NCBI GenBank assembly: GCA_023078685.1
Contig: JALGAS010000001.1
Span: forward strand, 6,448,001-6,512,000
DNA: 64,000 nucleotides
From: Neopestalotiopsis rosae
Lineage: Eukaryota > Ascomycota > Sordariomycetes > Amphisphaeriales > Sporocadaceae
Direction: 5' to 3'
Positions 3,293-37,837 of this stretch are shown piece by piece. Both the position numbers and the translations under genes were made by a program. How positions within the stretch are numbered: the first letter of the stretch is position 1; each line of letters starts with the position of its first letter. The notes under the pieces are model-generated. The model did not search any database. It saw nothing but the letters and a program-made list of their open reading frames with translations, and was not told the origin of the DNA.

Positions 3293-3944
3293 ACTGGTTG
3301 ATAGAGGAATGATTCACTTCAGAGCGATGTGTAGGAATACCGACCAAGCAGAACAGACTACGGGAAAGATAGACGCATTTTTGTGATAAAGCTTTATCTA
3401 TCGATGTCTTGGGCGTTCGTAATGGTGGCCCTAAAGACAAATTGCCGTCAGAGCCAAAGGACAATTCACTATCACACCATTCAAATTCCTAGGCATCTAA
3501 ACCTGTTTGAATGGTGGCGAGTCCTCAGGAAAGTCTATGCCAGTTGGGGGCTACGGCTGGTACGGAAATTGATTGGCCATCGAACGCATCCTCGAGGATC
3601 ACTGCCGAGTAGGAATCTCCCAGACTGGCGAATCAAAAACCACTATCAATGGGGTCACAAAGCTGACTCGGTCTATTCAAAGCAGTGGTTCGTGATTTTG
3701 ACAGTATACATGGCGAAGGTCAACGTGATTGGTGATATCTTTCATTGCTTGGCCCCTCCGTACTCAGGCGCTGGGGGCGATGGTTTATAGCGTTTCCAGC
3801 ATTCATTTGCGCCCAGCTAAATCACCAGCGCCCCAAGAGGGGGCCATTGCGGTACGGAAAGTGGGTATTACAAGTCAAACCTAGGCTCGTAGATACGTAT
3901 TCTAAATCTCATTTTTCAGTGCCAATCCGCATCCCACGCAACGT
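3293..3944. other. intergenic between the membrane protein and the ABC transporter
   Basis: It is the upstream flank of the membrane-protein gene and the 3' flank of the transporter. A 135-codon plus-strand frame (3383-3790) has no recognisable domain and is not called. Confidence 0.5.
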
Positions 3945-13425: not shown

Positions 13426-16203
13426 ATGAGTACCAAAGACAGCGCCCCTAGATCGCCAAGAATAAAGCGTCGCCGAGGTGCCTGTCAACTGTGCCGCGAA
13501 AAGAAAGCTAGATGTATGCAACTACAACCCACAAGCTTCAGCACATATTGACACTCTACGTCAGGCAACGGTGAAGACCCGTGCTCTTTCTGCAAAGTAA
13601 GTACCTCATATCACCTAGCTGAATGTCACCCCCCATGAGAAGATGGAAGCTGAAAACCAAATTAGCGTCATGACAGCACTTGTACCTACTTACCAACAAA
13701 GGCCAGAACACTCGGCAACAGAGCAAGTGTTCAACAACAACATGAACATCAACATGGAGAGAATGATACCTCCACAATACCCGCAGGCACACCTGTCGAG
13801 ACAGTGACCATGCCTTGGTATGACACTATGGATTGGTCTTATGGCTCGACAGATCAAACGCATGAACCCTGGCCGCATGAATCCCATAGCACTGTTCTGC
13901 ACGACGACACTGAGCTTCTGATCCAAGAACTTGCTTCAAGCCTTGAAGACGGGCAATCAGTACAGTCCGTTGTATTTTCCCCCACAGTACCGGACTTCTT
14001 GACGTCCGAAATAAGTTGGGCTACGGCAGGTTCGTGTCATATACTTCTCCATTAGTGTTCATGCTAATAATGCCGATCACGGCGATTCAGATCCCATGAA
14101 GCTGTTACAAGACGCATCAGGTTTGGTCAAAGGGACCGAGTGGGCATTTGCGCCGAGCAGCAGTGGCCAAACTGTAGACGACGCAGCCTCCATCTCACCA
14201 GGTCCCGTTAAGGAACCCGAGACACAGTTTCGGTTGGAAGAATTGAACATGACTGCATCACCAGGAAAACATGAACGCCGCAGAAGTCTACTTTTCCCAA
14301 ACTCACATTCGTTTGTCAATTTATCCATCATAAAAAGTGGCCACATCTCCTGTAGCCATCATGTTGCGGAAAACGAGCCGGAGAGATCTGATAAACAGGC
14401 GCCGATTAAGCGTCGGGTTGATCAAATCACATCCAAGCTTCTTTCAAAAGGGTTCATCTTGGGCCTACCCACAGCTTGGGCCGATCACATTGGAGACGAT
14501 TCTCATACAGACGCGGACAGCATGCGGGCTCTTTCGGCTAGTCAATTGCATGACCTCGTGAATCGTGAGTAAATATATTAAGTCTCGTCTTCCGCCTGTC
14601 ACCAAAGCTCACTTCGTTCATAGTATGCTTCGAGGACCCATCAGGGTGAGTGCGTCGATGAGATACAAGTCAGTGGCTACCAACAAGCATTGACGACTGA
14701 CATTACCCTCAGCATTTCTTGCTTTATTGAAAAGACCGAAGTGGCAAAGCTCATCCGAGACGACACATTCAATGAGAATCTGAAGACCCCGGCTCTATCG
14801 GATGCAGACAGATTTATGCTGATACTGTGCCTCGCATGGGGCGCAATGATTGATCCAGGTAGAAACCTGAGTGTCATCTGCGACCTTCAGGTACGGTTGC
14901 TAGAGCTTTACCAGCTATTGGCCATGGAGCCCGACTCTGTACCAAAATACCTGGTATGATGAATCTTCATGAGATACAATAAAAACCACTAACGTACGAC
15001 TTTGTAGTGTATTGTGACTATGGTCCGTACTAAAGACTTTATTCGCTCTACAAACGGTCAGATTGTATTAACTATTGGTCCAGACAGCTTTCGCGTTCAA
15101 ATTTGGGCTCGAAAAATGCTCTTCCATCCTCGCAGAGGCAGTCTCACTGGCACAGTCGCTCCGGCTACACCTCGATTTCAGTCTCCAAGAGAAAGATTCC
15201 GGGATCAATACAATGCAAGTGAAACGGGCCACCTGGGTACTGTTCATTGTTGACAAGCGATATGCGCTCCGCTGGCAAACGTTTCCGGTATGCTGTCCCC
15301 TCGGGCTATTGGGACACCATTTGACAGTTTCAGTTGCTACCTGACCCGGACTACGATGTGCCAATCCTAGAACAAAAACGATTTGTTCGCCACACCTTCG
15401 ATTACGACTCCCGCATTGGCGAGTGGAGACAAGACTGTTTATTGTACCAGTGCTCCTATGCTCAACTATGTTCTCGCATCATAAGACTGTCCTTTTACTC
15501 AAACACAAGGACTACGTCACCGACAAAGAGGACCGCTGACAACGACGAAGTTCGAGAGGATCAAGATTTGTCTTCTAGCTACAGCGACAGTGCAAACATC
15601 AATCGTCTGCTCGCCGAGCTCTACGACTGGTTCATGTCAATACCTTCTATTTGTCAACGCCGCGCAGACATTGAGGGTGACAACGACCTGCAAGCAGAGC
15701 ATCGCGCACACATCAAGATTTCTGTGGCGTACCAGTACTACGAGGCATTACTGTCAGTCCTAAGCCTACTTGGCACGAGTAAATTATCGGCTTGCTACCG
15801 TGATCCACACACCCAAACAGAACGAACGGCAACCACGATATTGATGCAAGCCATCAGGAGCGTCTTGGAGATGGGTACACAGATATCGCAAATCACTTTC
15901 GACAGGTACGTTGTCTAAGCTGCGACTTTTTTCTTGCGCGTTGATCATGGATTGTCTAAACCAGCAATCAAAGATTGGCTGACCGATTGCGATAGAACAC
16001 TTCTACACGTGCCAACAATGGCTTTGTGTCTCCTAGCTGTCGAGAAAGCAAATGCGAATCCCGAACTGATTACAAGAAAACGTGAAAGTCAAGTTCTGAT
16101 CGCTATGGCGTATGGCCTATTCGGAAGGCTATCGGAGACTTTGCCACATCACAGGTTCTTCGAACATGTTGCTGAAATAGTTGCCATGGTCGATAGGATC
16201 TGA
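13426..16203 (+). CDS. Zn2Cys6 transcription factor with fungal-specific middle domain; probable cluster regulator
   Basis: The binuclear zinc cluster is assembled over the first three exons (13426-13513, 13565-13596, 13666 on). It reads CQLCREKKARC, then CSFC, then a sixth Cys in DSTC, with a basic stretch KRRR before it. Further exons include 14091-14564, about 14624-14648, about 14705-14954, about 15075-15294, and 15334 to about 15906. The segment AEAVSLAQSLRLHLD followed by FIVDKRYALRWQTFP matches the fungal-specific transcription-factor domain. The last exon (about 15960-16203) is not in phase with the best donor at 15907, so its junction is unresolved. The gene lies between the carboxypeptidase and the first UstY gene and probably controls the cluster, perhaps through the CGGWCCG elements. 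Total length is roughly 650 residues. Confidence 0.82.
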
Positions 16204-16387: not shown

Positions 16388-17307
16388 TCAAGTTGGCAGC
16401 TCCTGCAAATCAGAAGCCCTATGTTCCACTGCCCAAGCCGAGATCCCGTCGATGTTTCTGCACATATGAACTGCCCCGAACCCATCAATTCCAGGTGGGG
16501 TCACCGTCTTGCCCTGACCCTCCAGCGTGGTATCACCACAACAGCGGACGGAGAGTCGAAGGTACTCAAAACAATGCTCAATATGCTTACGGCGCGATGA
16601 GAGAATATGAAGCGACAAGTCCGTCGTTGTCGCCATCGGGAGAAGCTCCTCTACGAGTTCAGCGATGCTGTGCAGGCAGTGCAGCTGGTGAAACACGGCA
16701 ACATTGTAGCTCTCGGTCCCATCACTTGGTGCGCGGACTGGCGCTGGAAGTAGTGGATAGGACTGCCAAGATGGAACTCGCACAAAACCACCGCCCACTA
16801 CACACGTCAGTATGTCAAAGGAAACGATGTGGCTCTCCTGACTTACGCTCTGGGAGCAGCTCTGACCACCGCGAGTCGTTGGCGTGCAGGGGATTGAAAT
16901 CTGGTTCTTTTGTGAATAAAGTAGGCTTTGAACCAACTGTAGTAAGACATGAAATTAGATTATTGGTTATGGCAGACCGGGCGTGGCGGGGTTTTCTTAC
17001 AAGACGGCGCAAAGCCATTGACTTCGCCCAGAATCTCAGGGATTGGCGGATCCGTCCATAGCTTCCAAAGAAGATACCACTGCGCAAGTACTACGGAAAG
17101 AAGAAGAATGCGACGAAGGTATTTCCATGAAGTCAGCACGACATACTCCTCCGTGAGCATGTCCATTCGTCGAAGGGTGTTTTTGAACTGCTTGCTAAAC
17201 ATCGTCTCTGTCAGACTTGTAGCATAACATGAGATCTTGCCTGAAGAATAATACCCAGAGAACAAATCATCAATAATTCTATGATCCTTTAGCATTTCTG
17301 AAACCAT
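16388..17307 (-). CDS. UstYa/DUF3328-type oxidase A
   Basis: Three exons (17307-17001, 16936-16847, 16797-16388) give 268 residues. One membrane span lies at about 64-84 after a cytosolic tail, followed by a lumenal domain. The two family motifs are present and complete, HQLHC (169-173) and HIEHC (204-208), then CCGDTTLEG and the C-terminal CRNID region. In ustiloxin, asperipin and phomopsin pathways such proteins catalyse oxidative macrocyclisation of Kex2-released peptides, probably as copper enzymes in the secretory pathway. It is a close paralogue of the gene at 25439: same exon phases, nearly the same length, and shared GGGF at the third exon start. It is divergent from the transporter over a promoter with two CGGTCCG sites. 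Confidence 0.9.
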
Positions 17308-17608
17308 ATCAGAGCGCTTGTGCTACCGGGGGCAGCCAGTGACTGTGAAAGCCGCCGGTCCGAGCTGCGGTCCGGCGAGCATCCACCCCCGGAAAATAGT
17401 CCGCGATTGATTAGTGCTGGCCGGGTATAGCACAAACAAGATCATGCTCGCCAATCAGCACGCACTCACTACAGCAACTCCTATTCTGCAATTTTGTCTT
17501 CAGTTCCTGCATGACAGAATGCGAAGCTCAGATCTCACAAATCCATTGTCTAACTCATATCCTGAACAGATTAATTAGCAAACACGCCTGAGTTGAGCTT
17601 CCGCCACC
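17308..17608. promoter_or_regulatory. bidirectional promoter, UstY gene A / transporter, with two CGGTCCG sites
   Basis: About 300 bp between two divergent start codons. CGGTCCG occurs at 17356-17362 and 17368-17374, 12 bp apart start to start. The element has the form CGG-N-CCG, an inverted CGG pair as recognised by Zn2Cys6 dimers. The spacing would place both sites on about the same face of the helix. Confidence 0.6.
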
Positions 17609-19692
17609 ATGGAAAGCGAACCAATTTATGAAGAAATACCCTTCATGCAGGAAGATGGAGAAAATCAATCTAGTGACAGTCTGCCAGCGAAAGACCGACC
17701 TCGATTGAGGCGAGACTTTTTGATTGCAGCTATCCCATTCTTCTGGCAAGTACAACGACTTAATGAACACAAATTTAATAGGCAAGGACACTGACTCTCG
17801 GGGTCGGATAGCCTCCAGCTAACATGGAGCATCCAACAAGTTTTTGGAATCGTGAGTCGCCTCCAGTTTGATTACTCTTTATGGTCGTTTCATTTCCATT
17901 TTTGCTAACGTCTTATATCAAGCCGTATCTACTCACCTTGGGAGTAAGCGACAGCAATGTCCCGCTTTTCCTGTTTGCCGGGCCTCTGGCAGGTCTCATC
18001 GTTCCACCGATTGTCGCTGCCGTAGGCGACAGCTTTGACAGCCCGTACGGCAAACGCAAGCCCCTCATCTTCTTTGGAGGTATTGGTGTCGTTTTTTCAC
18101 TAATGACCTTTGCATCCACGGGCGTCATTGTCGAGCAATTCTCATACTCTACCGCCGGGGTCTGGAGCAATACCAAAGTCGCCCACGTTGTGGCGGGGAT
18201 CAGTCTTTACATGCTCAACTTCTGCATCCAGCCTCTGTCACTAGGTCTGCGTGCATCTGTGGTCGATTACTTTGACCCGGACGAGCAGATCGCCGTCAAT
18301 CTCTGGGTCAGCTGTTTTTCGGTCATGGGATCCATATTTGTTGCTCTTCTGGCGCTGGCGTACAGTCCCGCGTTCTGGGATATGAGCCTCGTCCTAGTCG
18401 GCCTCCTTTCTGCAATGCTCATTTTAGTCGCAGTGTCGCATTTGTACCGGGCTTCAGTACCTCATGTATCGGAACATGGGAGAAACTCAACATCCATACG
18501 TGCTCAACTTGCACAGACATTGAAGACGGCGAAGAATCTGCCGCCCATTACTAATTGGACCTGTAAGGTGCAGTTGAAATCATGGTTTGCTTGGTTTCTG
18601 ATTCTTCACTACACCAGTGTGTAAGTCTCAATGTCCTCTTAAAGTTGGGTATAAATGCAGAGCTGACCTGAATTGATGCTGATTTGAAAACAGTCTTGTA
18701 TCTCGTGCATGTGAGTTCGTTTTTCATTTGCTGTCAATCAAGCGAAAAATGGCACTAACCAATGTCAAGACGAAAACTATAGCGGATCTCCTAGTTCTTC
18801 ATCGGTAGATTCGTCTCCGCAGGCAGCTACGGCTATTGCCTGGACCGCACTTCTATTCCATTGCGCATCCTTACTGTCCCTTGTCGTGGTCTCTCTTTCC
18901 AGGGGAGATTCATCTTATCACCTGCTATCTGCAAAGCTGGACGGGGAACCTGGTGGCATTGATGATGCTGTTTTCACTATCGAAGATGACAGCGACCTCG
19001 AGACTGTGACAGACGAGGCGGACATAGGACGTGCTTCGCTTCATGTTCCATCCGCCCGCCGTAGTCTTGAAGCGAACCACGAAGATCGGCATGATATCAC
19101 AACCAATCTTCTGCAGCCTGTACAACTCGAAAAGCAGGTCGACATTTATGATGCACCTCCGACGCTAGAAGTCACCCGTAAGACACTATGGCGGGAGGTG
19201 TGGAGACCGTCCCTGCTTGGACTTGCAGTATCTCTCATGGCCACTATTGCAACGAGTCTTTTACCGCGGAGCACCACTACTGCTCTAATGACCTCACTCC
19301 TGCTCGGCTCCAATGGACTCTTGTTCAGTCTGGCAAACTGGGTGCCGTACACGCTCATTGCGTGTGAGGCCGCCGTACATGCCCGAGCCAGGATGTCAGA
19401 ACCCTCTGAACTCGATGACGCAGTAGATGCTACCAAAAAGGAGAAAGACAGACCTGAGGGTAAAGATGGAAGTAGCAGCGAGGACGGAAACAACAATCTC
19501 GAGGCTGTTGGCGATTTTAGTACTCCAAGGCTCTTGGCGGTTCACAACATGTCCATCACCATTCCACAGATTACCGCACTTGTCGTTGTGTGGTTTCTGG
19601 ATCAAGGGCTTGAAGCACTGGGTGTGGCACCTGATGTTTTGTGGACTTTTGGTCTATGTATTCCTGCACTGATTTGGGCAATATGTCAGTAG
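17609..19692 (+). CDS. GPH/sucrose-transporter-type major facilitator
   Basis: Five exons (17609-17749, 17819-17851, 17923-18620, 18694-18710, 18770-19692), including 33-nt and 17-nt micro-exons, give 603 residues. LTWSIQQVFGI followed by PYLLTLGV, then GPLAGLIVPPIV and a loop with SPYGKRKP, resemble the glycoside-pentoside-hexuronide:cation/sucrose symporters. About twelve hydrophobic spans are visible, with a long acidic loop in the second half and another charged loop near the C-terminus. Ustiloxin-type clusters usually contain a transporter, generally of MFS type; export of the cyclic peptide is inferred from position and from the shared promoter with UstY gene A. Sugar transport remains possible. 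Confidence 0.82.
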
Positions 19693-20123
19693 CAGCACTC
19701 TTCATTGTGCAGTGGCAGAGCTAGACCTTGACCTAAAGTAGTTGTGGTCACTATTCTCACTTAGAAATAGCTCGTCTTAGCGCTAGTATCACTGACCGTC
19801 ACCCAATGTCGCCATCAAAGAGGGTTTCCTCACAACTAAGTTCTTATTCGCACTCATCTCATGTGGTAGGTGAAACAATTATTATAGTAAAGAGGGAATG
19901 TTATAGTTCAATGACTCGGTATAAGCCCAGATAAGGAATATCAGAAGGATAGAGAATGAGAAAAGGCTCAATTATAACGGAAAATATCAGAAGAGTTGTT
20001 CTCCATTTTGTCCTACAGCGGAATACAAATAGCTAAAAGAAGAAAAGTTCAATTGCTATTTGTTATCCAATCATTCCAAACAATCAATCATTTCATTTCA
20101 TTCCTGCCGCACTACCATGCATC
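19693..20123. other. intergenic, convergent 3' ends
   Basis: AT-rich region between the converging transporter and HxxHC-protein genes. It presumably contains both 3' UTRs and transcription termination signals; no gene or strong motif was seen. Confidence 0.5.
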
Positions 20124-21071
20124 TTACAGTATTGGCATATAACATTCGCCACCCAAGCCAAAACCCGAGGTTCCTCCACCAAACTCGCCCAGCACAACCT
20201 TGGTCAGTGCAGTGGGATCGTCATCTTCCGTCATGATATGCAAACAGTGATACATGTGCCCAGGATCAAGAGGGAGGTAACCCAGACCCCGATTACGGCG
20301 CGTGGTATGCTTGACACGAAGACGCATGACAAACTTGCAGTGCTCGATATGGAACGCCTGGGGAGTAAAGACCTCCGTGTGCACGCCGCCAGGTATATCG
20401 GCAGCCCAGATACGCTCTTGCGGTATGGGCTGCGTACGCTGGGCGTCAAGCCACCAGCCAAAGTCGGGAAGTTGCAGCCATTCGGCGCGCAGCTCTGGGT
20501 CGTGGCAGAGCTCGTGGACCCAACCGCCTTGGCTTGGGTCGAGCACGCAGCCCCGAGCTCGAGCGCCTTCAGGGTCGGACCAGCCGTTGCAGTACGAGGT
20601 GTTGTAGGCAAGCCCGTAGCCCGCGACGGGAAGTTGGCCGCCAGGTATGAACATGGTATTGAGTGATTCATGGTTGGGGTTGGTGATCTTGTGCCCAGTA
20701 TTTTCATGGCTGTCGGCTTCATGATCATTTTGAGTTTGGATTGGGAGACTGGCCGTGACAGTGACTGTTTTGGCGGGCCGTTGAATGGTTGTCGCTGGTG
20801 AATGTGGGATGAGGGCGCGGGCTTTTCCGAGCTCAATGGTGGCCAGATGAGTGAGCCATAGTGATGCGCCCCAGGCAATGATGCTGGCCACGATCAAGGC
20901 GGCGCGCATGCAAAGCCAGACAATGGATAAAAGCGACCGTTTTCTGTATGCATGGTCCCACTTTGGTACAATGGAATCATCTTCATCCTCAGTGCGTTGA
21001 CTATTACTCTCGAGCTCGGGGTCGCTCGCCAAGACCTTTTCGTACTTGTCATTGCTAGGTCTGGAGCCCAT
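20124..21071 (-). CDS. single-span membrane protein with two HxxHC motifs, not a canonical UstY
   Basis: One exon, 315 residues. An acidic cytosolic tail is followed by one membrane span (about 48-73) and a lumenal domain. The domain has YCNGW, a Cys in GCVLDPS, a CHDPEL stretch, FGWWLDA, then HIEHC (241-245) and HMYHC (272-276). Two HxxHC motifs about 30 residues apart are also the signature of UstY/DUF3328, but the rest resembles another widespread fungal family of unknown function. Its upstream region has CGGTCCG at 21233 and CGGACCG at 21296, which ties it to the cluster. I infer a metal-dependent modifying enzyme acting on the secreted peptide; no family activity is known to me. Confidence 0.75.
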   Translation of the reverse strand: MGSRPSNDKYEKVLASDPELESNSQRTEDEDDSIVPKWDHAYRKRSLLSIVWLCMRAALIVASIIAWGASLWLTHLATIELGKARALIPHSPATTIQRPAKTVTVTASLPIQTQNDHEADSHENTGHKITNPNHESLNTMFIPGGQLPVAGYGLAYNTSYCNGWSDPEGARARGCVLDPSQGGWVHELCHDPELRAEWLQLPDFGWWLDAQRTQPIPQERIWAADIPGGVHTEVFTPQAFHIEHCKFVMRLRVKHTTRRNRGLGYLPLDPGHMYHCLHIMTEDDDPTALTKVVLGEFGGGTSGFGLGGECYMPIL

Positions 21072-21644
21072 GATTGATTGTGTGATTGTGTTGTCGAAAG
21101 GCAGTATGAGAGAAAATTATCTTGAGAATGAACAATTAGTCACTGCAAAAGCAGAACTCTCGACGGTAATGGTCGTTCAGTCAAAGGCGCGTTTGAGTAC
21201 TTGGCCCTGGTCGGAAATGTGTATACTCTGGCCGGTCCGGTTTAGCGGGGTCCGGAAACTAATGGCGCCAAAGCCTCCGCTATTCCTGGGCTCAGCGGAC
21301 CGCTTCAGTGGATGCTCCCTGGCACGACCTCCGGAAATCTCGATGATGAGCTCTGGCGTGCTGCCTGTTAACCTATGCGCAATTGAACGCAGCCTTATGA
21401 GGGTGGATTTTGGTTTCGTTTCCTGTAAAAATTCATATCTTCATTCTATAACTTTTTTTTTTTCGAGAAATTGGTGTTGTCCCTAGGGGTCGCGTTGGAA
21501 ATACTTTGCCCATCTGAAACACTATATAGTAGTCGCATATGGTAAAGCAGGCCTAAGATCTGGATCATCTTGTCACAAAATTGTAACAATCCTGATAATC
21601 ATTGATAAGTGCATTTGAATTCGAAATAAACACTTTCCAAATCT
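21072..21644. promoter_or_regulatory. promoter region of HxxHC protein with two CGGWCCG sites
   Basis: CGGTCCG lies at 21233-21239 and CGGACCG at 21296-21302, 160-230 bp upstream of the minus-strand ATG. A further GGGGTCCGGAA sits at 21247-21257, one base from the consensus. A T-tract is present at about 21452-21462. Confidence 0.55.
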
Positions 21645-23105
21645 CTATGGAGTTTCTAGTAGTAAATACTTTTCCATTTTGCCTGCTAGTACCACAGAAG
21701 GCCTGTCCAGTGCTCTCCACACATAATCCGACACAAGCACTACCACGCACGTTATGGGGACAAAGGCAATCCACATACCCACGTGCGCTCCAACCTCCGG
21801 ATCAAGACCAACATCTGCGGACGAGGCAATGAAGTACTTTCTCATCTGGGAAGCAAAAGTCCACCCGCCAACTTGCAACAGTGGTTCATGTACAAGATAG
21901 AGCGCGAAGGAGATACGACCGACATACCTCAGCAGGGGGGTGGTCAAGAACGCTTGCACCCAGCCAATATTTGCTGCTGACCAGACCAAGAGCGCAGCTC
22001 CCGCCGCTTGCCAGAATTGAGGATATGGGCAAAGCATGCCTAGCCAGCTGAATCCAAGAGCTTCAGCACCTCGCTGTTCAGGGTATGAGGCCAGCCACAA
22101 GCCAGTGAAGACGACGACCAAGTCGCGCAGCATAGTACACGTACTGCGCCATCTTCCCGACAGCCAATTTCCATTCACGTTCTTCCACTTTGGCTCAACT
22201 GCTTTCTTGGAACCAATGTGGCGGTCGGCAAACATCATGCCACATAGGAACATAGCCACCTCCCATCGGTCGCAGAGACAACTATACAGTATCAATGACC
22301 CTGTGAGCGCGAACTTTGCCCAGCGCTCGGCTACCCGGCTCAGGACTGTCATTATGAAGAACAGTATGAGTGAACAATGAAATTCGGTCTGAATAGTCCA
22401 CAAGTGTGCACCGTAGTAGCTGGCATGAGGGCTAGCAAACAAGTCGTAGTTCCATCGCCACGGATTCGTTAGTCGTCGGACCACAAAGTCGAGCCAGTCC
22501 TCAAACTGAGCAAGGAATGTGTGTTGCCTCCTTGGTCGGAGGGGCACCCAGTGCGCAGGCAGGGCCATGAAGAAGTCCTCCCGGGCATAGAGTTGACCTG
22601 CAAACAAGACGAATATGCAGAGGCTTGTGACTACTGCAGGCAGAAACAGACGGATCCCACGCTTCAAGGCTGCAGCCGACAGACAGTGAAGAACCTTCTC
22701 CCAGTCCTGCCAGTGGATCGCCCGCAAAGTCGAAAGTGACAAGACGTAGCCCGAGATGATGAAGAATATGTTCACCATGGTCGCGGCGCTGCGAAAGAAG
22801 CCCATAATTGGCAGCCCAAAAATGCCAGCCGAGTCTGGGCTGCCGGGTACAGACCCATGTAGCAGTGATCGGCTAAAGGGCACCATGAAATGGTATACAT
22901 ATACTGCAGATGCTGCCAAGCCCCGGAGGCCGTCGAGATAGGCCGTGTCTTTGAGGCGGCTACTTCCGATGGATTTGGAGGACGTAAGAGTATTCTCCTC
23001 CTCGCTGGTAGAGTTCATAAAACTAGGAAGAAGGATGGTCGCGAGTCTCTTGACCATTTGGCATGTCCATGCCCCGTTTGAGATAGCAGAACGTTTGTGC
23101 GACAT
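21645..23105 (-). CDS. acyltransferase-3 family membrane protein
   Basis: One exon, 486 residues. YLDGLRGLAASAVYVYHF (from about residue 55) is the family's N-terminal motif with the conserved His; GYVLSLSTLR and about ten membrane spans follow, as does YLVHEPLLQVGGW near the C-terminus. The family (OafA/NodX-like) transfers acyl groups, usually acetyl or longer, from CoA donors across membranes to sugars, lipids or peptides. Its promoter has two CGGACCG sites 10 bp apart, so it belongs to the cluster on regulatory evidence. O- or N-acylation of the peptide product is inferred. An acyltransferase of this family is not a usual part of the ustiloxin pathway. Confidence 0.9.
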   Translation of the reverse strand: MSHKRSAISNGAWTCQMVKRLATILLPSFMNSTSEEENTLTSSKSIGSSRLKDTAYLDGLRGLAASAVYVYHFMVPFSRSLLHGSVPGSPDSAGIFGLPIMGFFRSAATMVNIFFIISGYVLSLSTLRAIHWQDWEKVLHCLSAAALKRGIRLFLPAVVTSLCIFVLFAGQLYAREDFFMALPAHWVPLRPRRQHTFLAQFEDWLDFVVRRLTNPWRWNYDLFASPHASYYGAHLWTIQTEFHCSLILFFIMTVLSRVAERWAKFALTGSLILYSCLCDRWEVAMFLCGMMFADRHIGSKKAVEPKWKNVNGNWLSGRWRSTCTMLRDLVVVFTGLWLASYPEQRGAEALGFSWLGMLCPYPQFWQAAGAALLVWSAANIGWVQAFLTTPLLRYVGRISFALYLVHEPLLQVGGWTFASQMRKYFIASSADVGLDPEVGAHVGMWIAFVPITCVVVLVSDYVWRALDRPSVVLAGKMEKYLLLETP

Positions 23106-24043
23106 GTCTATTGTGGTAACTTGGTACTCTAGACGTATTGTAGAGCTGAAAGTAAGTCTTCGACGTTCATTGACACCGCATCGTCACATTGTAAGGTCGG
23201 TCAAATACGAGAAATGGGTGAATTAAGACTGTTTCGACATCATCCCGGGTATGCTGTCTATTCCATCCTGCCACTCAAGGTCGAAGTTGAGTGGACGCCG
23301 CCGGAAATGCCATTGCGGACCGCCCCGGACCGGGCGGGTCAGGTGGGCAATGTAAGATGGCGTGCAAATCTGAGAGCTAGCTTCTAGTTTTCGCCTCCAA
23401 TAGCGATATCGACTTTTCTCACTGTTCGTGTTCAACTTCAATTATGATTCTTCAGGAACGGTGAACGGAAACGATGTGGTTGACATACACTATACCTCTA
23501 CAGTTATGTATAGGTACATTCGTGGTGCTTCAGTGAGCGCGTAATAGCTCAGATGTTAGTGTGGGTACTGTCTACTGTAGTTCTATATGGCAGTGGCTCA
23601 GACCTGACCTCGGGGGAAGACTCCCTTACAAGCAGCGAGTCATAATTTTGTGTGAATTTGAACGTAAGTCGATTCTGAGCGAGCTTGCTCTACGTAATGC
23701 ATCAATTACATCAGTGATAAGCAGGTAGGAGACGGACTCCATACAGCTAGGAGGTTCCTTCCACTTTCAACAGTGCTCAGAAAAAGCTTGATTGACAATA
23801 TTGTTTTTGTCCACTTGGTCAATATTAGTGCTTCCTCAAATGAACAAGAAAGCAGAAATCTGACTTTGGACCAAATGTCACTAAGTTCAACGCTTCGTAT
23901 GTTCAAATGAGTGTATTGCATGTAAGCCAAAACCTGCTATCGCGCTACCATTAATCGTGTACCGTCATTCGTCTCATAAAGGAGATGTCGCATCTCATCG
24001 ACGTCACCATACTAAGTTCCTGGGGACAAGTTATGCCTGTTGT
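23106..24043. promoter_or_regulatory. promoter of acyltransferase with paired CGGACCG sites; 3' flank of precursor
   Basis: CGGACCG occurs at 23316-23322 and 23326-23332, about 215 bp upstream of the minus-strand ATG. The remaining 700 bp is AT-rich with no supported gene; it holds the precursor's 3' region. Confidence 0.58.
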
Positions 24044-24750
24044 TTAGGCAGTCTCGTCATCACCCTCGTACTTGACAAGGTAGCGCTTGTCCTTGGCAGC
24101 AGCCTCCTCATCTCCCTCATACTTGACGAGGTATCTCTTATCCTTAGCAGCTTCCTCATCTCCCTCATACTTGACAAGGTATCTCTTGTCCATGGCAGCC
24201 TCTTCGTCACCCTCGTACTTCACGAGGTAGCGCTTGTCCACAGCAGCTTCCTCATCGCCTTCGTACTTTACAAGATAGCGCTTGTCCTTGGCGGCTTCCT
24301 CGTCTCCCTCGTACTTGACGAGATAACGCTTGTTCACTGCAGCCTCCTCATCACCCTCGTACTTGACCAAGTAGCGCTTGTTCTTGACAGCTTCTTCATC
24401 GCCCTCGTACTTGACCAAGTAACGCTTGTCCTTGGCCGCTTCCTCATCTCCCTCATATTTCACCAGGTAGCGCTTGTCGTTGGCATTGTCGCCCTCGTAC
24501 TTGACGAGATAGCGCTTGTCAACAGTAGACTCGTCATCACCCTCGTACTTGACAAGGTATCGCTTATCGACGGCTGACTCATCGTCTCCCTCATACCTTA
24601 CGAGGTACCGCTTGTCGACAGCAGATTCTTCATCGCCCTCGTACTTGACGAGGTAGCGCTTATCCTTGGCGGCCTCCTCGTCACCTTCGTACTTGACCAA
24701 GTAGCGCTTGTCATTGGCGTTGTCGCCCTCGTACTTGACCAGGTATCTCT
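24044..24750 (-). repeat. 15-copy tandem repeat of about 48 nt within the precursor
   Basis: Units are 48 nt, with two of 42 nt and one of 51 nt. They are diverged at third positions, for example TACTTGGTC, TATCTTGTC and TACCTCGTG for YLV, yet nearly invariant in the first eight amino acids. Units 1-2 and 6-7 carry the same spacer order (NAND, then EEAAKD), which suggests a block duplication inside the array. Confidence 0.95.
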
Positions 24751-24904
24751 TGTCGCTGACCCTGTTTCAGAATAGTTAGCATGAAGTGATCAATATTGTG
24801 GGTACACCTCTAGTATATATTTGTAGTACTTACTCGGCGGGCAGAGCAGCTGCCATGCAGAGTCCGAGGAGGGACAGAACGGCGAAAGACTTGGTGGAAA
24901 CCAT
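24044..24904 (-). CDS. dikaritin-type RiPP precursor with 15 YLVKY repeats
   Basis: Two exons (24904-24834, 24761-24044; 72-nt intron with GTAAGT donor, GCTAAC branch and CAG acceptor, in phase) give 262 residues. The first exon is a signal peptide (MVSTKSFAVLSLLGLCMAAA), followed by LPAE and VSDKR. The rest is 15 tandem units of the form YLVKYEGDEEAAKDKR, mostly 16 residues. Units 1 and 6 have the short spacer NAND, unit 14 has one extra Ala, unit 4 reads YLVRY, and the last ends DDETA at the stop. Every unit is preceded by D/N-K-R, a Kex2 site. The core YLVKYEGD is nearly invariant, the acidic spacer varies, and the codons of the core differ between units. This is the architecture of UstA, PhomA and epichloecyclin precursors, processed in the secretory pathway and cyclised by UstY proteins. 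The start shown is required to include the signal peptide. A non-peptide repeat protein is unlikely given the KR sites and neighbours. Confidence 0.95.
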
Positions 24905-25438
24905 TTTGATAAAGTTGAAGGTTTAATATTCTTCAAAAAGAATGAATTTGCTTTTGATGAGTGAGCTGAGGCGACGAAGGACTGAGTATGATAGCGTTGA
25001 TGCTGCTGAACAAAATCGTGACTTGAGATGAAGACGTCGCGGACTATATACTTGGATACAATGTGATTCGACAGCAAATTCGAATACTGCTACACAATGA
25101 TGCCTTCTCCAATGAAGAAACAGACTCTTCCTCAAACATCGCCTGCTGCCGTCGTCCGCCCGGAATGCACCTGTGCCGGTTGGGCGTACGGAAATCCGGA
25201 ATTGCTGCGGACCGGTTGGTTGAGCCGGAGGGGTACATGGTCATCGTTGCAGATTGGCAGAGATCTTCCAGAGTGGGCTATTCAATTTCTTCACGTTTTG
25301 CAGAGACTGTGGCACTTTGATTGGACCACATAGCCCAGGACATCAAACTTTGAAGCTTCCAGGTCTCAAGTCGTAATCTACGTCCTTTCTTCACAATTTC
25401 TCATCTCTTCCTTCAATTACACATTGAAATACTGTAAT
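24905..25438. promoter_or_regulatory. bidirectional promoter, precursor / UstY gene B, with CGGACCG
   Basis: About 530 bp separate the divergent ATGs. CGGACCG lies at 25208-25214, about 305 bp from the precursor ATG and 225 bp from that of gene B. Related sequences (GTCCGCCCGGAA at about 25154, TCCGGAATTG at 25195, GAGCCGGAG at 25222) surround it. Confidence 0.6.
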
Positions 25439-26361
25439 ATGGCTTTCGGAGTGTACAACTCCAAACAGGCTGCCATGCGCAAGTCGTCCGAGCGACCGCT
25501 GCTCAGCATCCCTAGCTCGTCCTCGACATCTGCTAGAGATGATTTTGAATACGAAGTCGACCGAACCATCTTGAGGCACGAACATAGGCAGCGACGCAAA
25601 GCTCAACTTGTCACGATCTGTCGAAATGCCCTCATCGGTGTCCTTCTATTGGTTGTGATGCTGCAGACTGCGATATTGCACTCCACATGGCTGGAGTCAA
25701 AGGAACCGCGGCCGCTGGAAGAGATCAACTCGCTTGTTCCGTCTGGTAGGAAGATTTCTCAAGAAGATTTTGACAGACAGAGAAGCTAAACGTCATATAT
25801 AGTCCGATCCAGTGTAAAGATATTCAGAGCCGACCCCGATTTCGATCCACTCAATGCTACCGACACGAGGTGGATGGATGTCATGCCAGGTGAGAATCGT
25901 TGGACTAAAGCTCGATCCAGCGTGCAATCTATTGACAACATCTCGATGCAGCCGGGGGCGGTTTCATTTCTGTTGACGACTTGAGTGATAAGTCACTACC
26001 GCCCCCAATTCGATCGCGCGGGAAGAATCTGTACAACATCGCTGTCTATCATCAGTTACACTGCCTGCACATGCTGGCCGAGGAGTTCAGCAACCTCCTG
26101 GGCAACAATAAACATGACGCACACGAGGATATGTCGGACGAGCTAATGATGTGGCATATCCGACACTGCTTCGAATACTTGAAGAACTCCCTGACATGTT
26201 GTGCTGATACGGCCTTGGAGGGCCAAAAGAGTGATACAGACGAGCCTGCCACTGACGGTTTTGGGGCTTATCACGTCTGTAGAGACTTTGACTCTGTCTA
26301 TGACTGGGCAAGGGAGCACCGCATATCGGACCAGGGTGGCTATCCTCATGGGACAGCATAA
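25439..26361 (+). CDS. UstYa/DUF3328-type oxidase B
   Basis: Three exons (25439-25745, 25803-25889, 25952-26361) give 267 residues. One membrane span lies at about 57-80 after a cytosolic tail rich in Ser, Arg and Lys. The lumenal domain has HQLHC (165-169) and HIRHC (200-204), then CCADTALEG and CRDFDSV. Both motifs are intact. The 307-nt first exon, phase-1 introns and 410-nt last exon match oxidase A exactly, and AGGGF at the last exon start matches its LGGGF, so A and B are recent or conserved duplicates. It is divergent from the precursor over a shared promoter with a CGGACCG element, so it is a prime candidate for the first cyclisation step. Confidence 0.93.
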
Positions 26362-26941
26362 GAAACATGTAGTGAATGCATACATGAGCTATTTTGTTAC
26401 ATACTTCAAGTCTTGATTGACTCAAGCGCTACTCATAAAATTGATTCTGCATGTCTCGCGGCTCTCTATATATATAATTGACACGCACTGTGCATTGACA
26501 ATGAACGATTTCCGAAAGCAAAACGTCAAGGCACTAGGACTTATATCAAGCGCGATCTGGATGGACACTGATTTTAGACTTGTCAGTTCAGCAGGTGTTC
26601 TCTTTCGATTTCCATTTTAATTCCTCGATGTTTCCATGTGGGAAGCCAGAAGAAAAGAGAAAGCAAGGCAAAGAATAAAGATATACATATTGAAAATATC
26701 AAAATTTGTATTACTCCAGATCAAGCGTATTTGAGTGGATGGTCACGTCCCAATGTATTTTCTAGACCAAATGTGTGTTGCTCCATTCCTAGAAAGTCAA
26801 GCCTAATCACTCTATGAGCGGGCTACTAAGATCTCGTTACTCGTGTCGCCTCGACAATTTTCCCTTGACCACCTCAAAGATTGACATGTAGCATTTCCCT
26901 CACTCATGCCGCTCGACTGATTACACGGAACCAAGATTTTT
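26362..26941. other. intergenic, convergent 3' ends of oxidases B and C
   Basis: AT-rich, presumably two 3' UTRs. No gene is supported; a 67-codon frame at 26417-26620 has no motif. Confidence 0.5.
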
Positions 26942-27659
26942 TCAAGGGGCAATCGGATGCTCACGGATGAGATAGTCCTAAGTGGTCGTGTTAGCAAGCC
27001 AAACTCATTGATTTAGCGGATGTTCAGTAGACCTACCCTGTGGGGCATTCCAGACGTCTGTGCCCACTGGTATAGGATTGAATCATCCTTGCACATGTGC
27101 CACAGCGCATTTCCGTCAATGATTTTTTGCTCTGGCGTGAGTTGCGCGACGGGATGCAGGGTCGTATCAGCATGACAAAGAATGCTCTGTACAATGAGAC
27201 TTAGTGAATTGGTCATTTCTTCTAGGTGTCTTTCAGTCTTACCTGCCGGACATAGTCGAAGCAGTACGACACGTTTGCGTAAGAAGACCTAGGACCTCGA
27301 TCGGACATAAATCTGCGCGCCTCTGCCCCGGACCTACTGAGCGCTATAAACTCGTGGCGGATTTCGCGCAGGCAACGGAGCTGGTGGAACATGGCGGGTA
27401 TGGCCCAGAAATGAAAGCCAGTGGTTATGTTAGTCGCGAGGACAGCACCATTATTCGATGGCACCAAATCGCGCCAGAGAAGCTCGGCTTCGTCGTCAAA
27501 GTGTCGATATGACACATTTCCAAGTAAGAATCGTGGTTTTGCTTCGACTTCGGGCAGATAGGTGTGGTGAGCAAGTGGTGGCGGCGGGCCGGTCAGTGAC
27601 AGCCAGAGGAAGATGATGGAGGCGCCTAGCGCGCAGGTCATGTACACGTATTTCAACAT
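26942..27659 (-). CDS. UstY/DUF3328-type protein C with degenerate HxxHC motifs
   Basis: Three exons (27659-27243, 27186-27037, 26977-26942) give 200 residues. The protein starts almost at once with a membrane span (about 5-22), and has a family-like lumenal domain ending CKDDSILYQWAQ and a short tail made by the last 36-nt exon. The first motif reads HQLRC (92-96), with Arg in place of the second His; the second reads NVSYC (129-133), with both His replaced. The following SILCHADTTL matches the CCADTTLEG region of the other members. Cysteines are kept. It may be a non-catalytic partner, as UstY proteins often work in pairs, or may have a different metal site. It is divergent from gene D over a promoter with two CGGACCG sites. 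Confidence 0.85.
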
Positions 27660-28001
27660 TTTGCAGATAATTTGGTGTATACGAGTAGTTCACAATGGTG
27701 TTTACTGATGTCGACTCATCGGTATTATGAGATCTCTTCAACAGCAGAAATGGCAATCGACCAAGTTGGCATGGAAAGAAAAATGGCCGTGTTACCTTAC
27801 TGGACTCTGAAGGCCGGACCGGCTGAGTGGAGTGCTGTAGCCCCGGACCGGCTGTGGAATAGTGCACTGTAAAGGGAGATGCGCAACTTGGAATCGACTA
27901 CAAATGGCACACTGGAAACTGGTTATCGCGTTGCCCGAATGAATTTCATGAATGCACTTTCTACCCGTTCACTCAAGAAAGCAAAAATATCTGCAATCAC
28001 A
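27660..28001. promoter_or_regulatory. bidirectional promoter, UstY genes C and D, with two CGGACCG sites
   Basis: CGGACCG lies at 27815-27821 and 27844-27850, both extended to CCGGACCGGCTG, 29 bp apart. About 340 bp separate the ATGs; this is the most conserved pair of elements in the cluster. Confidence 0.62.
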
Positions 28002-28667
28002 ATGGCACCTCCATCTCAAAATTCCAAACTCCCTTGGGGAATGGGTCTTTTGACCGCCTTCTGTATAATCCTGGCCTTTGTATTTCACAGTCGCTGGGAT
28101 CGTCCCGTCTCGCAGTGGCCCATCAACCTGCCGCTGCGTCCCTATACCTTTGTCGACCACCCACATCTCCGTGATTTTGACAATGCCGCCGCCAGCGAAT
28201 ACTGGGGCGCCATGGTCTGGCACGAATGGTGGAACGCCGAATGGCGCGACGACGCCGGTCGACGATTCCCGCGAGGTATTGACGTGTTTCACAAGATTCA
28301 CTGCATAGTCGCTATAAGAGAGGAGTTTGCCAATCTTGCCATGGACGATGTCAGGCCGTCGAAGAGAGAACTTGCATCTGAAACACAACCAGCAAGTCAC
28401 GATAAGAGGGTGGTTGATCTCACGCTCAACCAAAACCACTTGGAGCACTGTTTTGACTTTCTGCGACAGGTAAGAACTTCACTAAGTCGATAGAAGTTCC
28501 CGCGTACGTACTAAGCCTTCTAGGATATACTCTGTGCAGCAGACATGACTTTGGAACCACTGGCAGAAGGATACGTGGAGACGGATGGCCAGGGCGTAGA
28601 GCACCAGTGCAAAGACTGGCGAGTACTCTTGGACTTGATGAAACTACCCGATATGGACGAAATTTGA
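28002..28667 (+). CDS. UstYb/DUF3328-type oxidase D
   Basis: Two exons (28002-28469, 28524-28667) give 203 residues. The start at 28002 (ACAATGG context) puts a membrane span at about 15-30; in-frame ATGs upstream (28.0 kb minus about 60-120 nt) would only lengthen the tail and would run into the CGGACCG promoter region. The motifs HKIHC (97-101) and HLEHC (146-150) are complete. Behind the intron follow ILCAADMTLEP and VEHQCKDW, the typical end of the short UstYb-like members. By analogy with ustiloxin it would cooperate with a UstYa-type enzyme (A, B or E) in ring closure. Confidence 0.92.
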
Positions 28668-29247
28668 TGTATCTAGAAGTATCAACCAAACAAAATGTCA
28701 CTTTAATATATGCGAGTCTCTTACACAGCTGTTCTTGTTGCTTTCTTTCTTTCTTTCCATACGCCTCGTGGTCTCATTCGTATTTGATATGTACTACTCA
28801 CATTTCTGGAGTACCAAATCGTCCAGAGACCATTAATAGTAAATCATTGAAGAAATGGGTACTTGATTCTGTTCCTGCTACAATCTTCTACCACCATGCT
28901 GTGACTCATTCATCTTCCTCCTTGCATGTTACTTTTTCAGTTGTCAGAGTGAACTCCCATCGTTCGGAAATACTGCAGAGATAGTGCAAGGGTCTGCTCT
29001 GCAGCACGTTCATCCGAGTAAGATGATTGGGTGGATCTGCACACATCGAGGAGGTTATAGAGGGTTGTCCGGTCCGGGCGGTCTTTGGTTGGGGCTGCAG
29101 CTCCCGGACCGGGCTCACAGTTACACATGTACTGCGCTGTGAACACCCAAATCAGTAAAACAATACTCTCAATTGATTTCAATGCAATTCGATTTCATCT
29201 ACTACTTTTCTTTTAGGCAGCGAGATCATTCTACCCAACAGATTACC
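28668..29247. promoter_or_regulatory. promoter of UstY gene E with two CGGWCCG sites
   Basis: CGGTCCG lies at 29070-29076 and CGGACCG at 29105-29111, 35 bp apart and about 140-180 bp upstream of the ATG. A TTTC-rich microsatellite is present at about 28738-28757. Confidence 0.6.
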
Positions 29248-30361
29248 ATGGCTGACTTTGAACGCGATTCGGACACCTTGTCTAGCGAAGAGGCCACGCT
29301 CCTAGCTGGTGAAAAGGATGAGTTTGAATTGAAAAGGCCTACTAAGAGCAGATTTAGTCGTTCGAAACTCACAAGGGCATTTATCTACGCTTTTCACACA
29401 TTTTTCTTGATCATAAATATTATCTGGGCTTTTACAAACTTGCACTTTCGTGCCGCGAGCTCGACGGGACATGGAACTCCTTACGGTAAGTTGGGGCGCC
29501 GATTGATCTAGAGGAATTAGAAGCTAACAGCGCCAGAACCGTGGGACGCCCCGCTGCAAGAGCAGTACTCCCAGTACCAGCTTCCACTGGGTGAGAAATC
29601 AATCTACACGACTTTTGATCGTTCGGTGGCCGACCCGGCATGGTCAAAAATTAGCATGAAGGACGGATGTAAGTTCACTAATTGATTCCTCACATACAAA
29701 ATCCGCATCCTCGGGACTGTTCCATCCATCAGTTGCTAACGTAGACTAGTGGGTTGGATCAAAGTCCCCCAAGAAAAGGTCGAGGCCATGGATCAATCAT
29801 CTGTTCAGTTCCATGACCGATCTGGATACTTCTTTGGCATGGATGTTTTTCATCAACTCCACTGCTTGAATTACCTGCGCAAAAAGACTGTTTTGTACAA
29901 TCATCTCTATCCTTCCGAGACAGAAGTGGAAGACCAACAGGTTCCACCAGAATTCCACATTCGTAAGTTTTAGTGTCCTTTCTTTCGCATGGAACATACA
30001 GTACACTAGTATCGAGGATAGCAGCTGACTGTCGTTTCCCTCGGTAGCTCATTGCATAGACTCGATTCGGCTGTCTCTTCAATGCCATGCCGACCTCAGT
30101 CTTATTCCTCAACGATGGGCAGATGGTTGGCTCGAGCCGTGGGCAGTGTGGACAAACAAGCATGTCTGTCGAGATTTTGATGCGATTAGAGACTGGGCCG
30201 CCGACAGTGTTCCGGACCTTTCCAACACGCTTCATCACCCCGACTTAGGTACTGTCGTATCTGGAAGACTGAACCTATCGGCCTTGCCTATCTGGCAGGA
30301 AGTGCATGATGAGAATGTCGTAGTCGGTCAAATGCCCGTTTGCCATGTTCACAGTGGGTAG
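29248..30361 (+). CDS. UstYa/DUF3328-type oxidase E
   Basis: Four exons (29248-29485, 29537-29668, 29750-29962, 30048-30361) give 298 residues. One membrane span lies at about 43-64. HQLHC (158-162) and HIPHC (193-197, formed across the third intron) are complete; QCHADLSL and CRDFDAIRDW follow. The domain between span and motif has the YTTFDRSVADPAWSKI pattern usual in UstYa proteins. The C-terminal 40 residues after HHPDL go beyond the typical family end and could mean that a further intron was missed. It lies at the far edge of the cluster, with two CGGWCCG sites upstream. Confidence 0.9.
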
Positions 30362-37740: not shown

Positions 37741-37837
37741 TCCCTCGAGCCGGATTTGAACCGGCGACCTGTGGATATTCCTGAATTGGAATTGTTGCAA
37801 TTACAGTCCATCGCTCTGCCAACTGAGCTATCAAGGG
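37741..37837 (-). tRNA. tRNA-Tyr (GTA) with intron
   Basis: The minus strand folds as a tRNA: acceptor stem CCCTTGA/TCGAGGG with discriminator A, D-arm GCTC..GAGC, anticodon loop CTGTAA with anticodon GTA, T-arm CGCCGGTTCAAATCCGGC. The anticodon stem TGGA/TCCA is split by an intron of about 23 nt just 3' of the anticodon, the usual place in eukaryotic nuclear tRNA-Tyr. The internal A and B boxes are present. Confidence 0.93.

What the first reader, a model, noticed from the sequence alone, without database searches (positions are those of the whole stretch)
24044..24904. New repeated RiPP precursor: 15 copies of a YLVKYEGD core between Kex2 sites
Seen: signal peptide, then 15 units preceded by KR with a nearly fixed YLVKYEGD and a variable acidic spacer. 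Known: UstA, PhomA and epichloecyclin precursors have this layout and give cyclic peptides. Inference: a cyclic peptide with two Tyr four residues apart. I know of no described fungal peptide with this core. It was missed as a full gene by simple ORF calling because a 72-nt intron separates the signal peptide from the repeats.
Basis: partly seen in the sequence, partly recalled or inferred. Interest (0 to 1): 0.97.

Follow-up and report, generated by a model that had tools for sequence, protein, structure and literature searches.

The report
Fungal repeat peptide with copper cyclases
A fungus closely matching Neopestalotiopsis has a gene, read here across one predicted intron, for a protein with 15 nearly identical eight-residue peptides between predicted protease sites, flanked by six genes related to a copper-enzyme family, so it likely makes a new ring-shaped peptide whose structure and role are untested.

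Summary
Minus strand, ATG 24904, predicted 72-nt intron 24833-24762, stop at 24044: 262 aa, 15 units after KR, core YLVKYEGD in 14 and YLVRYEGD in 1. The core is held at protein level (pN/pS 0.035; spacer 0.285). A search of 5.8 billion proteins scored 7998 candidates and found no relative; no paper in the held library contains YLVKYEG. All nine structural genes have CGGWCCG upstream. UstY_A and UstY_F homologs appear on contigs of equal length in six named fungi. Best reading: an asperipin/phomopsin-like UstY RiPP cluster without tyrosinase or S41 peptidase in the window; a Tyr1-Val3 ether is the likeliest ring. Expression, product and role are untested. New variant of a known kind.

The parts
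24044..24904 (-). Precursor gene: exon 1 24904-24834 (signal-like peptide), predicted intron 24833-24762, exon 2 24761-24044 (15 units after KR, core YLVKYEGD)
25439..26361 (+). UstY_A: UstYa-family gene, exons 25439-25745, 25803-25889, 25952-26361; 267 aa; HQLHC and HIRHC; divergent from the precursor across a shared promoter gap
   Evidence: PF11807 E 8.9e-29; same 267-aa length and 99% identity as an annotated Neopestalotiopsis sp. 37M protein
16388..17307 (-). UstY_B: UstYa-family gene, three exons, 268 aa, HQLHC and HIEHC
   Evidence: PF11807 E 1.4e-19
26942..27659 (-). UstY_C: UstYa-family gene, three exons, 200 aa; motifs degenerate (HQLRC, NVSYC), so predicted not to hold the copper pair
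   Evidence: PF11807 E 2.2e-16; motif requirement from PMC12435403
28002..28667 (+). UstY_D: UstYa-family gene, two exons, 203 aa, HKIHC and HLEHC; shares its promoter gap with UstY_C
   Evidence: PF11807 E 1.2e-18
29248..30361 (+). UstY_E: UstYa-family gene, four exons, 298 aa, HQLHC and HIPHC
   Evidence: PF11807 E 7.6e-41
20124..21071 (-). UstY_F: single-exon 315-aa protein with a hydrophobic N-terminal helix, HIEHC and HMYHC; divergent UstYa-like family not reached by the Pfam model
   Evidence: no Pfam hit up to E 0.1; profile-profile probability 91.9, E 6.8e-7
21645..23105 (-). ACT: membrane acyltransferase, PF01757, 486 aa, single exon
17609..19692 (+). Transporter like sucrose/proton symporters (GPH/MFS_2; both hits below the curated cut-offs), interrupted by introns, not fully modelled
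13426..16203 (+). Zn2Cys6 regulator; DNA-binding domain built from three exons (13426-13513, 13565-13596, 13666 onwards); later exons and the end are approximate
   Evidence: PF00172 E 1.6e-8
17356..29111 (.). Eleven CGGWCCG sites (17356, 17368, 21233, 21296, 23316, 23326, 25208, 27815, 27844, 29070, 29105), all between genes, at least one upstream of each of the nine structural genes

Best explanation
The gene at 24904-24044, read across one predicted intron, encodes 15 nearly identical YLVKYEGD peptides each after a KR pair, sits among six UstYa-like genes, and is likely the precursor of a side-chain-cyclised ribosomal peptide. Predicted route: the protein would enter the secretory pathway; Kex2 would cut after each KR, freeing 15 peptides that begin with Tyr; a carboxypeptidase would probably trim the KR tails. 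Membrane-anchored copper enzymes with paired HxxHC motifs (UstY_A, B, D, E and the divergent F) would then oxidise the core in the Golgi or endosome lumen. The most likely first ring is an ether from the Tyr1 oxygen to the beta-carbon of Val3, the register of ustiloxin and phomopsin (about 45% likely on its own); Tyr5 may carry a second link as in asperipin. UstY_C has lost three of the four copper histidines and is predicted to be a partner subunit, most simply of UstY_D, with which it shares a promoter gap. The acyltransferase would acylate the peptide; the transporter would move it or a supporting metabolite; the Zn2Cys6 regulator would switch the set on through CGGWCCG sites. Shown: reading frames, motifs, families, promoter sites, homologs on contigs of equal length. 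Inferred: splicing in vivo, every processing step, product and role.
For: Precursor anatomy and core-only amino-acid constraint. Five UstYa (PF11807) genes and one divergent relative within 14 kb (profile-profile link). Copper, dimer and Golgi/endosome/vacuole membrane location for this family: CctR paper PMC12435403, parts 1 and 2 of 3 read. Survey PMC7329392, passages only: DUF3328 genes lie on average 3.09 genes from repeat precursors, 65.6% of repeats in such precursors contain Tyr, and all but three pheromone-type precursors lack them. Co-regulation signature: 11 of the 12 CGGWCCG sites of the window lie at 17.3-29.1 kb (12 observed; shuffles mean 5.21, largest 11), and none of the 12 is inside the nine modelled genes; 6 of the genome's 291 CCGGWCCGG sites lie in 7.9 kb here (the pattern read backwards has 711; 0.04 expected here). 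The motif was noticed before it was tested, so these figures are post hoc. Conserved neighbourhood: for 7 of the 16 UstY_A homolog rows one of the 18 UstY_F homolog rows has a contig of the same length, and for six of the seven the species name matches too; in Trichoderma arundinaceum the tags are TARUN_10150 and TARUN_10153 on an 8.6-kb contig. UstY_A's model matches an annotated 267-aa protein at 99%.
Against: No expression, splicing or product data. No precursor homolog was found, although UstY_A homologs from Neopestalotiopsis sp. 37M and Pestalotiopsis fici are in the same database: it may be unannotated there, or the core may differ. In P. fici only a stretch covering 47% of UstY_F matches, inside a 343-aa protein given an FAD-binding name and on another scaffold than UstY_A, so the set is not intact in every relative. 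Of the 16 UstY_A rows, 9 had no UstY_F row on a contig of equal length (three of these nine contigs are 1.0 to 5.0 kb, three rows are distant relatives). No tyrosinase or S41 peptidase match in the window, which ustiloxin/phomopsin-type clusters have. Both structure models are poor (mean pLDDT 57.7 and 55.6). Binding of CGGWCCG by this regulator is not shown, and one further CCGGWCCGG lies about 0.7 kb left of the window, so the left border is less sharp than the right.
Confidence: 0.82

Rival explanations
1. A Kex2-processed repeat protein that releases linear, unmodified secreted peptides (signal or effector); the UstY genes nearby serve another product.
For: In the survey PMC7329392 (passages) 6120 of 7878 repeat precursors have no DUF3328 gene nearby; the units are acidic.
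Against: Six UstYa-like genes flank the precursor on both sides, UstY_A shares a promoter gap with it, and all nine structural genes have the same site upstream. Tyr1 and Tyr5 are invariant in 15 of 15 units.
Confidence: 0.1
2. An alpha-type mating pheromone precursor.
For: Same layout: signal peptide and repeats between KR sites; the survey finds pheromones among such proteins.
Against: The core has no Trp or Cys. All but three pheromone-type precursors in the survey lack neighbouring DUF3328 genes. The one strict pattern tried, WCxxxGQxCW (motif recalled), was found nowhere in this genome, so the true pheromone gene was not located either.
Confidence: 0.02
3. A ustiloxin/phomopsin-type dikaritin in the strict sense, with the same tyrosinase-dependent chemistry (this overlaps with the best explanation, so the odds need not add to one).
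For: N-terminal Tyr and a beta-branched third residue as in YVIP and YAIG; several UstY genes and a Zn2Cys6 regulator.
Against: No tyrosinase or S41 peptidase match in the window; the nearest tyrosinase matches on this contig are over 170 kb away. No methyltransferase among the ORFs scanned.
Confidence: 0.08
4. A repetitive secreted protein with a structural role whose repeats only look like protease products.
For: The repeats are regular and acidic.
Against: KR is kept at all 14 junctions between units, and the spacer varies while the core does not; UstYa-like genes surround it.
Confidence: 0.02

Closest known systems
Asperipin-2a (aprA, aprY, aprT, aprR)
   Same: Repeat precursor with a UstY and a transporter and no tyrosinase among its four genes; the core starts with an aromatic residue and holds several Tyr (passages of PMC6514808).
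   Different: One UstY there, six UstYa-like genes here; core FYYTGY against YLVKYEGD; here an acyltransferase and a Zn2Cys6 gene, no reductase seen.
Phomopsin (PhomA and five DUF3328 proteins)
   Same: Signal-like leader, KR-bounded repeats, several UstY genes, zinc-finger regulator; Tyr1 and a beta-branched residue 3.
   Different: No tyrosinase or S41 peptidase match in the window, no methyltransferase among the ORFs scanned; core unrelated beyond Tyr-x-beta-branched.
Ustiloxin (UstA, UstYa, UstYb, UstQ)
   Same: Repeat precursor; UstY enzymes; Tyr-x-Ile register comparable to Tyr-x-Val.
   Different: There flanking residues must be removed on both sides of the core, here the core begins right after KR; no UstQ here.
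Epichloecyclins (GigA)
   Same: Repeat precursor with Tyr-containing cores in a plant-associated fungus (passages of PMC9233826).
   Different: There the linked Ile is N-terminal and the Tyr internal; different core.
CctR and other DUF3328 copper enzymes
   Same: HxxHC(x)nHxxHC, N-terminal membrane helix.
   Different: UstY_F falls outside the Pfam model although it keeps the motifs; UstY_C has lost them.

Membership tests
Kex2-processed repeat protein | Near-identical units separated by KR | tested here: met
   15 units, KR before each of the 15
Kex2-processed repeat protein | N-terminal signal peptide | tested here: inconclusive
   Hydrophobic N-terminus; no dedicated predictor was run
UstY-modified RiPP (dikaritin in the wide sense) | UstYa/DUF3328 gene with double HxxHC beside the precursor | tested here: met
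   UstY_A, B, D, E pass PF11807 with both motifs
UstY-modified RiPP (dikaritin in the wide sense) | Tyr in the core | tested here: met
   Tyr1 and Tyr5 in 15 of 15 units
UstY-modified RiPP (dikaritin in the wide sense) | Side-chain ether macrocycle in the product | not testable with these tools
   Needs mass spectrometry or NMR
Dikaritin in the strict sense (ustiloxin/phomopsin) | Tyrosinase in the cluster | tested here: not met
   None of 63 PF00264 matches of the genome lies in the window
Dikaritin in the strict sense (ustiloxin/phomopsin) | S41 peptidase in the cluster | tested here: not met
   None of 4 PF03572 matches of the genome lies in the window
Dikaritin in the strict sense (ustiloxin/phomopsin) | Zinc-finger regulator in the cluster | tested here: met
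   PF00172 E 1.6e-8 on the spliced start of the gene at 13426
UstYa/DUF3328 family, for UstY_F | Pfam PF11807 score over its cut-off | tested here: not met
   No hit for UstY_F up to E 0.1; its homolog P0018 reaches only E 0.006, 16.9 bits against a cut-off of 25
UstYa/DUF3328 family, for UstY_F | HxxHC(x)nHxxHC | tested here: met
   HIEHC and HMYHC; H, H and C of the first motif invariant in 18 aligned rows, of the second in at least 90%
UstYa/DUF3328 family, for UstY_F | Homology to UstYa proteins | tested here: met
   hhalign 91.9%, E 6.8e-7, both motifs in register
Alpha-type pheromone precursor | WCxxxGQxCW-type core (motif recalled) | tested here: not met
   Core is YLVKYEGD

The most novel reading that the evidence does not exclude
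UstY_F founds a second, unnamed family of copper peptide oxidases that travels with UstYa clusters: it is the conserved partner of UstY_A in an unrecognised class of fungal cyclic peptides spread over Xylariales, Hypocreales and Helotiales, and the YLVKYEGD precursor is the first precursor seen for that class, finished by a dead/live UstY_C/UstY_D pair.
Probability: 0.33. Interest if true: 0.78.

Novelty: new variant of a known kind. Interest (0 to 1): 0.55.

Why it matters
Fungal UstY peptides include potent bioactive rings, and their chemistry is carried by enzymes whose family was shown to be copper-dependent only in 2025 (PMC12435403). This locus offers one compact set with a single core, six UstYa-like genes, including one predicted dead subunit and one member of an uncatalogued family, and a promoter signature that outlines the set. 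It makes two questions testable: which UstY does what, and whether HxxHC proteins outside Pfam's UstYa family are also cyclases. The genus includes strawberry pathogens; whether the product bears on disease is unknown.

Tried and rejected
Precursor homolog search: the 7998 candidates sharing most words were scored, none at E 0.01. To see whether phmmer's bias correction could hide relatives, I scored mutated and made-up repeat proteins locally: a decoy with the same core and other spacers still reached 1.6e-42, and one with one core change 1.1e-41, at that database size. An annotated protein with this core should therefore score high if it passes the word prefilter, which I could not test. The whole-genome search finds no second copy of the precursor. 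PDB search with UstY_A: no relative at E 1. Structure models of UstY_A's homolog P0001 and of UstY_F are weak, so no fold search was run. Strict pheromone pattern: none in the genome. NCBIfam gave nothing for UstY_F, P0001 or the acyltransferase. The serine carboxypeptidase at 10233-11498 and the ABC transporter at 3.9-8.5 kb were considered as cluster members and left out: no CGGWCCG site lies in the window before 12290. Paper searches: YLVKYEG (0 papers); YLVKY with RiPP terms (0 occurrences in the 40 papers listed of 54); pestalotioid fungi with RiPP or UstYa (20 listed of 286); UstY mechanism; recent fungal RiPP terms (15 listed of 19); locus tags of relatives (0). Most subscription papers are not in this library; the phomopsin paper PMC4822579 was not held, and supplementary tables of the surveys were not available, so a listing of this core there is not excluded. 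Of the Trichoderma RiPP paper PMC7099791 and the lichen RiPP paper PMC12048977 I saw passages only; none named this core.

Full report
Observation. The reported gene is correctly placed. On the minus strand, ATG 24904, donor 24833 and acceptor 24762 (72 nt, GTAAGT...CTAAC...CAG) and a stop ending at 24044 give a 262-aa protein. After a 29-residue start ending in KR come 15 units; 14 begin YLVKYEGD and one YLVRYEGD. The last unit ends the protein without KR. If the intron were kept, translation would stop at once, because the first full intron codon in frame is TAA (sequence).

Is it under selection as a peptide? Among the 11 units of equal length (of 15), synonymous differences are frequent in the core (pS 0.835), while amino-acid differences are rare (pN 0.029, ratio 0.035) and come from one K/R change; spacer positions 9-13 have pN 0.207 (ratio 0.285). 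Over all 15 units the core gives pS 0.769 and pN 0.0217. The units therefore look like old copies whose core is preserved, not a recent expansion. Pairs of units are not independent, so I give no P value.

Neighbourhood. A genome-wide search for the UstYa family (PF11807) gave 78 exon-level matches, which merge into 28 loci at a 15-kb distance. Six of the 78 fall in this window. With introns placed by eye and checked by script, the window carries five UstYa genes (A to E), all above Pfam's cut-off as spliced proteins. A, B, D and E carry both HxxHC motifs. UstY_C carries HQLRC and NVSYC instead, so three of the four histidines are gone while both cysteines remain. In CctR, mutants of the conserved histidines and cysteines lost activity, and the motif holds two copper ions at a dimer interface (PMC12435403, parts 1 and 2 of 3 read). 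UstY_C is thus predicted to be inactive alone; since it shares a promoter gap with UstY_D, a mixed dimer is the simplest guess (untested; CctR is a homodimer).

A sixth UstY. The single-exon gene at 21071-20124 (UstY_F) has no Pfam hit up to E 0.1, but it has an N-terminal hydrophobic helix and HIEHC and HMYHC. Its 18 database relatives are unnamed or called hypothetical, apart from two with automatic names, and the precomputed Pfam column is empty for all 18. In an alignment of 18 rows (the window protein and 17 of the 18 relatives; P0034 of P. fici was left out because only part of it matches) the first motif is invariant and the second is kept in at least 90%. Profile-profile comparison with the UstY_A family gives 91.9% probability, E 6.8e-7, with both motifs in register. 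Eleven weaker paralog places exist in the same genome, and 7 of the 11 lie within 5 kb of a UstYa match, where 0.7% of the genome lies (binomial 3.8e-13; some of these places look like duplicates of each other, so the figure overstates independence). Both paralogs that I read have the double HxxHC; neither reaches a Pfam cut-off. UstY_F therefore belongs to a divergent, uncatalogued UstYa-like family that keeps company with UstYa genes.

Other cluster genes. ACT (23105-21645) is a PF01757 acyltransferase (E 2.6e-17). A transporter starting at 17609 resembles GPH/sucrose symporters (TIGR01301 E 2.3e-11; MFS_2 E 4.3e-4; both under the curated cut-offs; start). The gene at 13426 has a Zn2Cys6 domain, C-x2-C-x6-C-x5-C-x2-C-x6-C, split over three exons (PF00172 E 1.6e-8). 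No tyrosinase (0 of 63 matches) or S41 peptidase (0 of 4) lies in the window. No methyltransferase appeared among the ORFs scanned (not every ORF of the window was scanned).

Promoter signature. CGGWCCG occurs 12 times in the window (shuffles: mean 5.21, largest 11). Eleven sites lie between 17356 and 29111; none of the 12 falls inside the nine modelled genes. At least one stands upstream of each of the nine structural genes; the twelfth, at 12290, is 1.1 kb before the regulator's ATG. The longer CCGGWCCGG has 291 sites in 53.77 Mb (the pattern read backwards has 711), 6 of them within 7.9 kb here, where 0.04 are expected. A further site lies about 0.7 kb left of the window. Held loci around other UstYa genes have 8 CGGWCCG in 122,736 bases (overlaps included), against 11 in 13,974 here. 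The motif was picked after seeing it in the sequence, so these numbers describe and do not test blindly. A CGG/CCG palindrome fits a Zn2Cys6 regulator (recalled knowledge of that family); binding is not shown.

Relatives. The UstY_A model equals an annotated Neopestalotiopsis sp. 37M protein in length (267 aa) at 99% identity; P. fici is at 87%. The genome here (53,771,149 bases, 17 contigs) is close to that reported for N. rosae ML1664 (53.78 Mb, 18 contigs; passage of PMC12891159); that this is the source is my inference. Of 16 UstY_A rows and 18 UstY_F rows, seven pairs share a contig length: Xylaria intraflava 83,455; Xylariaceae FL0255 212,348; Xylariaceae FL1272 1,275,198; Cladobotryum mycophilum 4,084,479; Trichoderma arundinaceum 8,618 (tags TARUN_10150 and TARUN_10153); Rhexocercosporidium 2,080,824; and one unnamed contig of 26,422. 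I read equal length plus equal name as the same contig. Their orders (Xylariales, Hypocreales, Helotiales) are recalled. In the window UstY_A and UstY_F enclose the acyltransferase and the precursor; two tags lie between the Trichoderma genes, and whether these are the same two genes could not be checked. P. fici runs against this: its UstY_A is on a 2.55-Mb scaffold and a partial UstY_F match is on another. The other eight UstY_A rows without a partner include three on contigs of 1.0 to 5.0 kb and three distant relatives.

Mechanism. Kex2 cleavage would release peptides with Tyr at the N-terminus. In ustiloxin and phomopsin the Tyr at position 1 is joined to Ile at position 3, and DUF3328 proteins are considered to form the ether (passages of PMC7329392); phomopsin's ring has 13 members, and asperipin is bicyclic through Tyr side chains and beta-carbons (passages of PMC6514808). 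YLV has Tyr1 and a beta-branched Val3, so the same 13-membered ring is possible; Tyr5 is followed by Glu6 and Gly7, and Gly has no beta-carbon, so an equivalent i to i+2 ether is not possible there and any second link must differ. This ring assignment is inference from register. Acylation is inferred from the gene family; the K4R unit still has a free N-terminus, so the N-terminus is at least as good a site as Lys4.

What is known. Repeat precursors near DUF3328 genes are common (1758 of 7878 in 1461 strains, 1.7 DUF3328 genes each on average; passages of PMC7329392). A new core alone is therefore a new member of a known kind. What sets this locus apart is six UstYa-like genes, one predicted dead, one of an uncatalogued conserved family, no tyrosinase in the window, and a promoter signature; hence new variant. 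Among 40 held loci plus the window and three more stretches, at least three further repeat frames next to UstYa genes with unrelated units appeared.

Noticed in passing
L007 (G000:C10:5906067-5909918), reverse strand, base 3390 counted from the locus end: A second Kex2-type repeat frame beside UstYa genes, with a signal-like start and units WAWTKWED... between KR sites.
   Followed up: partly
L042 (G000:C12:2357000-2366999), + strand near 3541: A third repeat frame inside a large UstYa locus, alternating units CAIPWTKNYGDYDEKR and SIDARACVSSTEEDGTVVKR.
   Followed up: partly
L001 (G000:C14:3875473-3878955), + strand near 3339: A fourth repeat frame beside a UstYa gene, units ADEDAIQEYSKR, cut by the locus end.
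   Followed up: partly
G000:C1:2.70-2.77 Mb (L045, L046): Several UstY_F-like places; pairs with equal scores on opposite strands (2706990/2771567 and 2747705/2768912) suggest an inverted duplication.
   Followed up: no
window 26942-27659: UstY_C is a UstYa protein with degenerate copper motifs, a likely pseudoenzyme.
   Followed up: partly
G000:C12:2468706-2469365: An S41 peptidase match about 3.4 kb from a UstYa match (2464452-2465294), so that other locus may be nearer to phomopsin-type clusters.
   Followed up: no
window 33580-35985 (-) and 39390-40571 (+): A gene with an NPHP3_N/NACHT-type NTPase domain (NLR-like) and a gene with a Tle1-like phospholipase domain, right of the cluster.
   Followed up: no
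window 37741-37837 (-): A tRNA gene by Rfam (56.4 bits), the only RNA family match at gathering score.
   Followed up: no
P0034 (Pestalotiopsis fici PFICI_03576): An N-terminal stretch like UstY_F joined in annotation to an unrelated-looking C-terminus, suggesting a decayed or mis-annotated copy.
   Followed up: no
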